From Pseudoduganella albidiflava (lineage in GTDB: Bacteria; Pseudomonadota; Gammaproteobacteria; Burkholderiales; Burkholderiaceae_D): a stretch of DNA of 64,000 bases. Shown here piece after piece: positions 29,577 through 46,104 of this stretch. Each line of letters opens with the position of its first letter. Position 1 is the first letter of the stretch. The notes under the pieces were generated by a model. It saw nothing but the letters and a program-made list of their open reading frames with translations. It searched no databases and was not told the DNA's origin. The position numbers and the translations under genes are program-made. The DNA lies in the NCBI RefSeq assembly GCF_004322755.1, contig NZ_CP036401.1:1116001-1180000 (forward strand). Direction: 5' to 3'.

Positions 29577-29599
29577 TCAAAAGCCGCGCGGAGCGGTAA

Positions 29600-29728
29600 T
29601 GCCGTTCTGTTAAGTCCACCCCAAGTGCAAATTCCGGGATCAGACCCGGCGGGTCTGATCCCAGCCCTTCGCTGTTGGGGTGGATGCATGCGCTTCCAAT
29701 GTGCCGGATTACGCTTAACTTAACGGCA
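29600..29728. repeat. Compact copy of a dispersed palindromic element after hrpA
   Basis: Nested inverted repeats: outer 15-bp arms (29600-29614 with 29714-29728, 13 of 15 matching), inner CACCCCAA/TTGGGGTG (29617-29624 with 29675-29682), and a central perfect 12-bp hairpin GGGATCAGACCC-GGC-GGGTCTGATCCC (29636-29662). Its ends, 29616-29634 (19 bases identical) and 29655-29695 (37 of 41 identical), match the inverted copy at 45781-46003. No gene lies between 29577 and 29746. Confidence 0.85.
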
Positions 29729-29746
29729 CTACGGCGGCCAGGCCTG

Positions 29747-43732: not shown

Positions 43733-44392
43733 ATGCGGCTGCTGCTGGTGGAAGATGATGTGATGATCGGTGAAGTGGTGCTCGACCTGCTGCGCGCCGA
43801 GCACTATGCCGTGGACTGGGTAAAGGATGGCGCGATGGCCGACACGGCCTTGCAGACCCAGACCTACGACCTGGTGCTGCTCGACCTGGGCCTGCCGCGC
43901 AAGGATGGCCTGGAAGTGCTGCGCTCCATGCGCGCGCGCAAGGAGCTGACGCCGGTGCTGGTCGCCACGGCGCGCGACGCCGTCGAGCAGCGTATCGCCG
44001 GCCTCGATGCCGGTGCCGACGACTATGTGCTCAAGCCGTACGACCTGGATGAGATGCTGGCCCGCATCCGCGCGCTGCTGCGCCGCTCGGCGGGGCGCGC
44101 CGAACCGGTGTTCGAGCACAAGGGCGTGTCGATCAACCCGCAAACGCGCGAGGTGATCGCCAACGGCGTGCAGGTCAACCTGTCGGCGCGCGAATGGGCC
44201 GTGCTGGAAGCGCTGATCGCGCGCCCCGGCATCGTGCTGTCGCGCGCCCAGCTGGAAGAAAAGCTGTACAGCTGGAAGGATGAAGTGAACAGCAATGCCG
44301 TCGAGGTGTATATCCATGGCCTGCGCAAGAAGCTGGGCGCGGAACTGATCCAGAACGTGCGCGGCCTCGGCTACATGGTGCCGAAAGCATGA
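43733..44392 (+). CDS. OmpR-family response regulator
   Basis: 219 residues: receiver with E7/D8/D9 region (LLVEDDVMIGE), phospho-acceptor D51 (LVLLDLGLPRKDG) and Lys in DYVLKPYDLDE, then a winged-helix DNA-binding domain (LSAREWAVLEALIARPG, with SNAVEVYIHGLRKKLG). It is QseB/PmrA-like. It sits between the HtrA protease and its kinase (ATGA overlap with the kinase gene), pointing to an envelope-stress or protease-control circuit. Confidence 0.94.
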   Translation: MRLLLVEDDVMIGEVVLDLLRAEHYAVDWVKDGAMADTALQTQTYDLVLLDLGLPRKDGLEVLRSMRARKELTPVLVATARDAVEQRIAGLDAGADDYVLKPYDLDEMLARIRALLRRSAGRAEPVFEHKGVSINPQTREVIANGVQVNLSAREWAVLEALIARPGIVLSRAQLEEKLYSWKDEVNSNAVEVYIHGLRKKLGAELIQNVRGLGYMVPKA

Positions 44393-45780
44393 AGGTGCCG
44401 GGGGTCTCCCGCATGAAGGTCAACACGCACTCGCTGCGTGGCCGGCTGCTGTGGTTCCTGCTGGCGGCGATCACCATGGCGGCGCTGGCGCAGGCGATGA
44501 TCGCCTACCGCAGCGCGCTGCACGATGCGGACCAGATCTTCGACTACCACATGCAGCAGATGGCGCTGGCGCTGCGCTCCGGTGCGCCGCTGGCGAACGC
44601 CCACCATGGCCCCAGCGCCGATCCGGGCAACGACGACATGGTGGTGCAGGTCTGGACGCCGGACGGTATCCAGGTGTTCCGCTCGATTTCCCGCGCCGAG
44701 CTGCCGCAGCGCGCGGTGCTCGGCTTTTCCAACGTGAAGGCCAAGGGCACGGTCTACCGGGTGTACTCGGTGCAGACCAGTAACCAGACGGTGCAGATCG
44801 CCCAGGACATGTCGGTGCGCAAGCGCATGGCCGGCGCGCTGGCGCTGCGCACCGTCGGGCCGATCGCGCTGATGGCGCCGATGCTGATGCTGGTGGTGTG
44901 GTGGGTCGTCAGCGGCTCGCTGGCACCGGTGGCCCGGGTGCGGCGACAGGTCGCCTCGCGCCAGGCGGAGGACCTGTCGCCCGTGTCCGAAGCCGACCTG
45001 CCGGACGAGGTGAAGCCGCTGGTGCACGAACTGAACCTGCTGTTCGGCCGCGTGCGCACGGCGTTCGACGCCCAGCAGCACTTCGTGGCCGATGCCGCCC
45101 ACGAGCTGCGCTCGCCGCTGGCGGCACTCAAGCTGCAGGTACTGAGCCTGGACCGCGCCGAGGATGCCGATGCCCGCAAGCTGGCCATCGCGCGGCTGAC
45201 GGCGGGCATCGAACGGGCCACCCGGCTGGTCGAGCAGCTGCTGGTGCTGGCGCGGCAGGAGGCGGCCGAGCCGAAGATGGACCCGGTCAACCTGGCCGAG
45301 CTGGCGCGGCGCACGCTGGGCGACATGGTGGGCGCCGCGCAGGCACGCGAGATCGACCTGGGCATCCACGAAGTGGCCGAAGCCACCGTGCAGGGCCAGG
45401 CCGACGCGCTGCGCGTGCTGCTGCGTAACCTGGTCGACAACGCCATCAAGTACACGCCTTCCGGCGGCACCGTCGACGTGTCGGTGCGGCATGCGGATGG
45501 CAGCGGCGCCGCCGAGCTGGTCGTCGAGGACAGCGGTCCCGGCATCTCGCCGGAAGAGCGCGAGCGCGTCTTCAGCCGCTTCTACCGCGTGCCCGGCACG
45601 ACCGCGACGGGCAGCGGCCTGGGCCTGGCCATCATCAAGGCGATCGCCGAGCGCCATGGCGCCACGCTGTCGCTGGACGCTTCCGAACGGCTGGGCGGCC
45701 TGCTGGTGCGCGTGACGTTCCCCGGCGCGAAGGCCGCCACCAGCAAGGTCCCCCTGGCCAAGAGCGCGACGACATATTGA
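44389..45780 (+). CDS. Membrane sensor histidine kinase
   Basis: 463 residues. Transmembrane helix 1 (LLWFLLAAITMAALAQAMI), a periplasmic sensor of about 110 residues, transmembrane helix 2 (PIALMAPMLMLVVWWVV), HAMP, HisKA with the phospho-accepting His in FVADAAHELRSPLAA, and HATPase with LRNLVDNAIKYTP, EDSGPGIS and GSGLGLAII. The start overlaps the regulator gene; Met codon 9 (44413) is an alternative start. QseC/PmrB-like architecture. The stop codon is immediately followed by the repeat element at 45781. Confidence 0.94.
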   Translation: MKVPGVSRMKVNTHSLRGRLLWFLLAAITMAALAQAMIAYRSALHDADQIFDYHMQQMALALRSGAPLANAHHGPSADPGNDDMVVQVWTPDGIQVFRSISRAELPQRAVLGFSNVKAKGTVYRVYSVQTSNQTVQIAQDMSVRKRMAGALALRTVGPIALMAPMLMLVVWWVVSGSLAPVARVRRQVASRQAEDLSPVSEADLPDEVKPLVHELNLLFGRVRTAFDAQQHFVADAAHELRSPLAALKLQVLSLDRAEDADARKLAIARLTAGIERATRLVEQLLVLARQEAAEPKMDPVNLAELARRTLGDMVGAAQAREIDLGIHEVAEATVQGQADALRVLLRNLVDNAIKYTPSGGTVDVSVRHADGSGAAELVVEDSGPGISPEERERVFSRFYRVPGTTATGSGLGLAIIKAIAERHGATLSLDASERLGGLLVRVTFPGAKAATSKVPLAKSATTY

Positions 45781-46003
45781 AAGCGCATGCATTCACCCCA
45801 ACGGCAAAGGGCTGGGGTCAGGGAGGAATGCTGGCATGCATGCCAGCATCGTTCCGCAGGCGCGAAGCAGGCTTCGCGAAACCCCTGCTTCACCCCGCCG
45901 GGGCGTAGCCGGGGTTTCAAGGAGCATCGCTCCTTGCCGGCGTAGCGGTACTGGCCTGCAGGCCAGTACTCCTCCCTGACCCCCGAATTTGCACTTGGGG
46001 TGG
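45781..46003. repeat. Long copy of the dispersed element with a hairpin array
   Basis: Ends match the 29.6-kb copy in inverse orientation (41-bp block 45781-45821; 19-bp block 45985-46003). Nested terminal repeats: CACCCCAA/TTGGGGTG and a perfect 14-bp pair GGGGTCAGGGAGGA (45814-45827) with TCCTCCCTGACCCC (45970-45983). Inside are two perfect 22-bp palindromes (45828-45849, 45948-45969), CGCGAAGC/GCTTCGCG (45861-45878), GAAACCCC/GGGGTTTC (45878-45918) and CAAGGAGC/GCTCCTTG (45918-45936). It begins one base after the kinase stop codon and occupies most of the 324-bp gap. Confidence 0.85.
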
Positions 46004-46104
46004 GCTTATACAGGCGGCATCGACCTGTCACCGGTTTTTTGAAGCGGTTGTCCCTGGTGCTGGGCTAGAATGCCCGTATTGACAGACAGCCAACAGGGCG
46101 GCGC

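What the first reader, a model, noticed from the sequence alone, without database searches (positions are those of the whole stretch)
45781..46003. Long version of the same element packed with five to six hairpins
Within the conserved ends lies a 14-bp perfect terminal inverted repeat enclosing two perfect 22-bp palindromes and three further hairpins, almost end to end. The design looks like a cassette carrier: constant ends, variable hairpin cargo. It begins one base after a stop codon. I do not recognise it as a named element.
Basis: partly seen in the sequence, partly recalled or inferred. Interest (0 to 1): 0.75.

Follow-up and report, generated by a model that had tools for sequence, protein, structure and literature searches.

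The report
Jumping DNA nested inside jumping DNA
This is one of about 200 copies of a small parasitic DNA element with the ends of an IS4-type transposon, whose central hairpin serves as a landing site for a second, still smaller hairpin element in one or both of its arms.

Summary
The hairpins are real; the stated boundaries are not. 45781-46003 is the inner part of a MITE with IS4-type ends; this copy spans 45770-46022 and lacks the left terminal repeat. The left-end 20-mer occurs 205 times in the 7.44-Mb genome. Copies with both ends have ~18-bp terminal repeats (TAATGCCGYTNAGTTAAG) and, in 28 of 63, recognisable 11-bp target duplications of a REP-like palindrome. A same-genus genome holds 1,419-bp IS4-family insertion sequences with such ends; the window's own genome has no match to their transposase. 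The "variable cargo" is a separate 72-73-nt double-hairpin module, M. It also occurs outside the MITE at other palindromic sites and sits at mirror positions in the core hairpin GGGGTCAG|ACCC. Each arm is empty or filled, giving ~78-, ~149- and ~221-bp cores; the window copy holds M1 and M2. All 27 doubly filled MITEs compared pair unlike modules (61-76% identical), though 75% of random pairs of single modules are >=85% alike: long perfect palindromes may be eliminated. The IS4-MITE identity is firm; mobility of M is well supported; its enzyme (Y1/HUH) is inferred only.

The parts
45770..46022 (+). the MITE copy: homology to the family from CGACATATTGAAAGCG to the right terminal repeat; the left ~25 bp with the left terminal repeat are missing
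   Evidence: comparison with complete copies
45778..45780 (+). TGA that ends the sensor-kinase ORF (44389-45780) and lies within the repeat
45814..45821 (+). left half-site GGGGTCAG of the core hairpin, directly before module M1
45822..45893 (+). module M1 (72 nt): hairpin 1 at 45828-45849, hairpin 2 at 45861-45878, outer stem closed by ..TTCAC
45894..45902 (.). centre of the core hairpin, CCC-GCC-GGG
45903..45975 (-). module M2 (73 nt), inverted: hairpin 1 at 45948-45969, hairpin 2 at 45918-45936
45976..45983 (-). right half-site (GGGGTCAG on the minus strand)
46005..46022 (-). right terminal inverted repeat, diverged (CTTATACAGGCGGCATCG)
46023..46040 (.). right half of a REP-like target palindrome (ACCTGTCACCGGTTTTTT)
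   Evidence: compare the reconstructed targets; letters
29597..29731 (-). the unfilled (short, 135-bp) MITE copy of the window with both terminal repeats

Best explanation
A two-layer nested mobile element. Outer layer: a MITE with IS4-type ends, formerly mobilised in trans by an IS4-family transposase and inserted, with 11-12-bp duplication, into the centre of REP-like palindromes (consensus about AAAACCGGKGTCWGACMCCGGTTTT), mostly behind genes. Its core is a hairpin made of two inverted copies of nearly the same motif (GGGGTCAGACCC-GNC-GGGTCTGACCCC). Inner layer: a 72-73-nt double-hairpin module M that inserts beside such a motif (GGGGTCAG|ACCC) without target duplication. Because the core is palindromic both strands offer a site, so a copy holds zero, one or two modules facing each other. 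Two like modules would form a near-perfect inverted repeat with ~83-bp arms; such pairs were not seen. Shown: IS4-type ends, target duplications, the full-length IS in relatives, M outside the MITE, 0/1/2 occupancy, unlike pairs only. Inferred: past mobilisation in trans; movement of M by a Y1/HUH enzyme on single strands; loss of like pairs through palindrome instability. No host function is claimed; a strongly folded region between the kinase gene and coaD is the likely side effect.
For: Ends and duplications: 63 of 130 sites have both terminal repeats; at 11 bp 22 of 63 flank pairs are >=80% identical against 2.4% for mispaired flanks; 28 of 63 reach 8 of 11. Parent: G028 IS copies with such ends; two of three fetched are 1,419 bp with exact 12-bp duplications, the third 1,612 bp with 11 of 12; ORF Nterm_IS4 4e-29, DDE_Tnp_1 5.4e-26, NF033592 264.9 bits over cut-off 115; nine full-length copies in G028. 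Absence from the kinase-coaD gap: in 13 of 15 related loci with both genes the gap to the CoaD motif is 50-165 bp against 342 here, and none of 26 loci has the element there by blastn. Module: outside the MITE in L037, L118, L119, L120 and in relatives such as L244; its three helices covary in 105 copies. Occupancy 63/40/27; unlike pairs 27 of 27; a double outside the MITE, L153, has arms 71% identical.
Against: The window copy has no left terminal repeat and no duplication of its own. 35 of 63 two-ended copies do not reach 8 of 11 at 11 bp (12-bp duplications and decay explain some). No IS4-type transposase in this genome. Joining M to its target leaves one base unaccounted for (A of ACCC lost), and the left neighbour varies (TCAG, ACAG, ACTG, CCTG), unlike a strict Y1 target. 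The Y1 gene beside one M copy has that neighbour in only 1 of 30 orthologous loci and lacks the first HUH histidine. Like-pair avoidance rests on related copies, so the cases are not independent; in four of the eight M2-left doubles the M2 arm is only 82-85% like M2.
Confidence: 0.8

Rival explanations
1. M is not mobile: empty, one-module and two-module cores are made from one another by recombination, gene conversion or template switching between MITE copies, and transposition of the MITE spreads the products.
For: Modules sit at one exact site in the cores; some duplications flank filled copies, so filled MITEs can have moved as units (L013, L126, L065).
Against: M occurs without MITE ends at other palindromes in this genome and in a genome with no match to the MITE (G003).
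Confidence: 0.2
2. The element is a host-selected structured RNA (terminator, attenuator or mRNA stabiliser) and its mobility is incidental.
For: Strong RNA fold; of 29 long copies 0 have their centre in a predicted gene, 15 lie between convergent, 13 between co-directional and 0 between divergent genes, 1 unknown; covarying helices in M.
Against: Only 5 of 33 window gaps are divergent, so 0 of 28 is weak; the target palindromes lie in such gaps anyway; no Rfam match; the only terminator-like hit is a 5-pair stem across the right end, with 0.4 expected; relatives lack it at this locus.
Confidence: 0.12
3. It is a REP/REPIN or BIME array of a RAYT, with no DDE transposon involved.
For: Palindromic half-sites and M hairpins resemble REPs; five Y1_Tnp genes in the genome, three flanked by GGGGTCAG-type motifs.
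Against: IS4-type terminal repeats, 11-12-bp duplications and the full-length IS; M lacks GTAG/GTGG at the hairpin foot (criterion from PMC6006769 passages).
Confidence: 0.05
4. Cassette carrier or integration site (integron-like).
For: Constant ends, variable interior.
Against: No gene cargo; one module family at one site; end structure and duplications of a DDE transposon.
Confidence: 0.03

Closest known systems
IS4 family, subgroup IS4 (PMC2266710, passages seen)
   Same: ends fit -AATR--------WTW----; parent 1,419 bp within 1400-1650; duplication 11-12 bp within 10-13; YREK spacing read by eye in the ORF
   Different: the window element is gene-less and its transposase is not in this genome
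ISRm22 and other insertion sequences that target REPs (PMC1525189, passages)
   Same: an IS4-family element inserting into REP palindromes
   Different: there a full IS; here a MITE that carries a like motif in its own core
BOX elements of pneumococcus (PMC3049150, passages)
   Same: constant end modules with a variable number of inner modules
   Different: boxB modules are in tandem; M sits in mirror-image arms, at most one per arm
QMITE2 with IS1111 (PMC10969869, passages)
   Same: a palindrome inside a MITE used as target by another mobile element
   Different: there a full IS; here a 72-nt gene-less module
REPs/RAYTs and IS200/IS605 ends (PMC6006769, PMC2817692, passages)
   Same: short hairpins, no duplication, high copy number
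   Different: no GTAG/GTGG foot; no enzyme tied to M

Membership tests
IS4-family MITE | terminal repeats shared with a full IS4-family element | tested here: met
   full element in same-genus G028, not in G000
IS4-family MITE | 10-13-bp target duplication | tested here: met
   for the family: peak at 11 bp, 22 of 63 at >=80% against 2.4%; not testable for the window copy, whose left end is missing
IS4-family MITE | short and without transposase gene | tested here: met
   about 135, 206 and 277 bp end to end
IS4-family MITE | transposase able to act in trans in the same genome | tested here: not met
   0 matches in G000; taken as later loss, so the MITE is orphaned
RAYT-type REP (for M) | GTAG or GTGG at the hairpin foot | tested here: not met
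   GGAGGA in the consensus
RAYT-type REP (for M) | copies beside the RAYT gene | tested here: inconclusive
   1 of 30 orthologous loci
IS200/IS605-derived element (for M) | hairpin near each end, no target duplication | tested here: met
IS200/IS605-derived element (for M) | insertion 3' to one fixed tetra- or pentanucleotide | tested here: inconclusive
   TCAG, ACAG, ACTG and CCTG seen
IS200/IS605-derived element (for M) | a Y1 transposase gene between the same ends elsewhere | not tested
   no search for a full-length element with M's ends was made
Integron cassette system | integrase, attC sites and gene cassettes | not tested
   no gene cargo in the cores read; no integrase search made

The most novel reading that the evidence does not exclude
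M is a new kind of minimal single-strand mobile unit (two unlike hairpins, 72-73 nt) that homes to palindromic REP-like motifs. It uses the palindromic core of a MITE as a two-sided dock and obeys an exclusion rule: a second module is kept only if it differs enough from the first. The population of copies would then be a natural record of how long a perfect palindrome a bacterial chromosome tolerates.
Probability: 0.3. Interest if true: 0.65.

Novelty: new variant of a known kind. Interest (0 to 1): 0.45.

Why it matters
Two kinds of gene-less mobile DNA share one palindromic address, and a simple rule (two strands, two docks) explains the size classes of a repeat family. The lack of like-with-like pairs, if it holds in strain comparisons, makes palindrome instability readable from sequence. 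It also warns that a strongly folded intergenic region in these bacteria need not be a regulatory RNA.

Tried and rejected
Integron or cassette carrier: no gene cargo; one module family. Rfam: 0 matches at gathering threshold over the window. The genome's two PF01609 hits as parent: the terminal repeat is not within ~1.5 kb of either. The Y1 gene beside an M copy as M's enzyme: not supported across relatives. Promoter scan: 0; terminator scan: one weak hit across the right end. Species: not named by any tool; the kinase is 78-81% identical to those of Pseudoduganella, Janthinobacterium and Massilia sp. Root351, so Oxalobacteraceae is inferred. A 26-base left-end pattern had 0 exact matches in genome contigs, where the own or very near genomes may be left out.

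Literature: no paper held {MITE, IS4 family, REP-associated tyrosine transposase}, {Massilia, miniature inverted-repeat} or {Oxalobacteraceae, MITE, insertion sequence}; two held {IS4, MITE, palindrom, repetitive extragenic, target site duplication}, one looked into by passages (PMC2817692), the other (PMC3852290) seen as listing only; one search listed five papers, none on this by title and abstract start. Only open-licence papers are in that library.

Sampling and dropped rows: L001-L029 were found with the long copy as query and so favour doubles; L038-L117 were taken by the left end alone; L118-L149 mostly by M's right end. One search counts 205 places but lists only part; three listed places were not read. 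In one search one locus (L136) is counted in both orientations and L088's module may be a neighbour's; both were dropped. Rows from L121, L236 and L240 were dropped. In one search the row L092_short was cut from a wrong stretch and is ignored. One search printed wrong frames for several loci; one search replaces it.

Full report
What is there. The strand folds far better than shuffled versions (DNA; RNA). It is a dispersed repeat: the 223 bp give 78 listed matches in the own genome, both orientations and fragments included, with only 40 of 305 candidates scored. The conserved left-end 20-mer occurs 205 times at up to three mismatches, reversed control 0. The short copy in the window is 29597-29731, minus strand.

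True ends. Of 130 sites, 63 have both repeats at <=5 of 17 mismatches. The bases just outside show an excess of identity at 11 bp: 22 of 63 at least 80% identical, against 2.4% when flanks of different copies are paired; a few are 12 bp. 28 of 63 reach 8 of 11; 35 do not. The 28 joined empty sites read about AAAACCGGKGTCWGACMCCGGTTTT, with 4.7 of 8 positions complementary about the centre against 2.1 when shuffled. A near-identical palindrome flanks one of the genome's Y1 transposase genes (L035). End-to-end lengths cluster near 135, 206 and 277 bp.

The window copy. Homology runs 45770-46022. The left repeat is missing, the right one is diverged, and half of a target-like palindrome follows. 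The TGA ending the kinase ORF lies within the repeat. I looked at 26 related loci from named genomes. In 15 the CoaD motif follows the kinase gene; in 13 of these the gap is 50-165 bp (84 in L247, 83 in L288, 165 in L246), in two 473 and 501 bp, against 342 bp here. None of the 26 carries the element in that gap; the only blastn match in them is 28 bp elsewhere in L250.

The parent. In same-genus genome G028, inverted pairs of the terminal repeat lie 1,419 bp apart at many places. Three were fetched: two are 1,419 bp with exact 12-bp duplications (CCGCCCGCGCGG, inside a terminator-like palindrome, and CGGCGCGAGGCC); the third is 1,612 bp with 11 of 12. The 442-aa ORF matches Nterm_IS4, DDE_Tnp_1 and NF033592 and holds Y-x2-R-x3-E-x6-K (read by eye), the spacing given in PMC2266710 (passages). 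Of 60 genomes (own, same genus, same order) 13 match at E<=0.001; near-full-length matches of at least 55% identity are in four (G028, G029, G031, G021), the rest are fragments or weak; the own genome has none. So the MITE is orphaned here. Other same-genus genomes carry elements with these ends and other palindrome-rich interiors. A match to the short copy is found in 7 of 60 genomes, the own included.

The core and the module. Unfilled copies have a 78-bp core with GGGGTCAGACCC-GNC-GGGTCTGACCCC. Cores of about 149 bp have one arm as GGGGTCAG-M-CCC, those of about 221 bp both. M is 72-73 nt: GGAGGA, hairpin 1, a linker, then hairpin 2 within an outer stem with a conserved GAAACC on one side. 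In 105 M copies from this and related genomes the three helices keep pairing while both sides change (up to 38, 42 and 33 double changes at one pair); among the diagonals listed only these three have two or more pairs with at least ten double changes. M is not confined to the MITE: L037, L118, L119 and L120 have it at GGGGACAG, GGGGACTG and GTGCCTG sites without MITE ends, and for L120 the empty form stands in tandem repeats beside L033. The same is seen in L244 from G003, a genome without a match. M matches 12 of 60 genomes, the own included. Cores without recognisable outer ends also exist (L129, L130, L133, L134). Joining M to the target leaves one base, the A of ACCC, unaccounted for; M1 and M2 differ there, so it seems replaced rather than kept.

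Occupancy. Of 130 sites 63 have no module, 40 one (35 M1, 5 M2) and 27 two: 19 M1-left/M2-right, 8 M2-left/M1-right. The set favours doubles; among sites taken by the left end alone 60 are empty and 16 single (L038-L117), and 13 further listed places fall on known doubles. Within the 27 doubles the arms are 61-76% identical, none reaching 85%; 74.7% of pairs among 38 single modules do. For 17 of 19 M1-M2 doubles the closest other M1 arm is in a single, so the doubles need not be one founder copied, though M1 arms differ little. A doubly filled core outside the MITE, L153, also has unlike arms (71%). This is what the known instability of long perfect palindromes (SbcCD; recalled, not from a call) would give; it is an inference.

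Who moves M. No duplication, two end hairpins and a short left neighbour point to a Y1/HUH enzyme. The genome has five Y1_Tnp genes. One lies beside an M copy; its relatives are found in all 36 same-genus genomes, but M is beside it in 1 of 30 loci. In 9 of 30 loci, including those of the four genomes richest in M (G000, G003, G020, G028), the first histidine of the HUH motif is replaced; 18 are intact and 3 were not read by the pattern (one of these, L351, reads intact). So the enzyme is open.

Place and effect. Of 29 long copies none has its centre in a predicted gene, against 294 of 400 random window positions; 15 lie between convergent genes, 13 between co-directional, 0 between divergent, 1 unknown (crude gene finder). 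Window gaps are 8, 20 and 5, so the lack of divergent gaps is only suggestive. It fits insertion into palindromes behind genes. A regulatory role is possible and untested.

Verdict. An IS4-type MITE family with a palindromic core that is colonised by an independent double-hairpin module. The IS4-MITE identity is well supported; the nesting in mirror-image arms and the unlike-pairs rule are the new points. Seven papers were seen as passages; none was read whole.

Noticed in passing
L069 (G000:C1:4829846-4830641): One MITE copy lies inside the core of another, at GGGTCTGACCC, with a duplication: the MITE also targets its own core motif.
   Followed up: partly
L072 and L110 (own genome): In two copies the core is interrupted right after GGGGTCAGACTGAGATGTCCCGGG.. 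by the same longer sequence, apparently an insertion sequence end.
   Followed up: no
L037 and L324-L353: A Y1 transposase gene of the RAYT type is present in all 36 same-genus genomes searched; in 9 of 30 loci read, the first HUH histidine is replaced, among them the four M-rich genomes.
   Followed up: partly
L033 (G000:C1:771914-772240 with flanks): Tandem repeats with GTGCCTGACCCC and GTGACACGG arms on both sides of a Y1 transposase gene; a like repeat elsewhere (L120) holds M.
   Followed up: no
L190, L191 (G028): The full IS4-type elements sit in the middle of terminator-like palindromes (AAAAGCC..GGCTTTTT), suggesting a taste for terminator hairpins.
   Followed up: no
L193-L204 (G028, G001, G020, G034): Elements with the same ends but other palindrome-rich interiors in other genomes of the genus.
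   Followed up: partly
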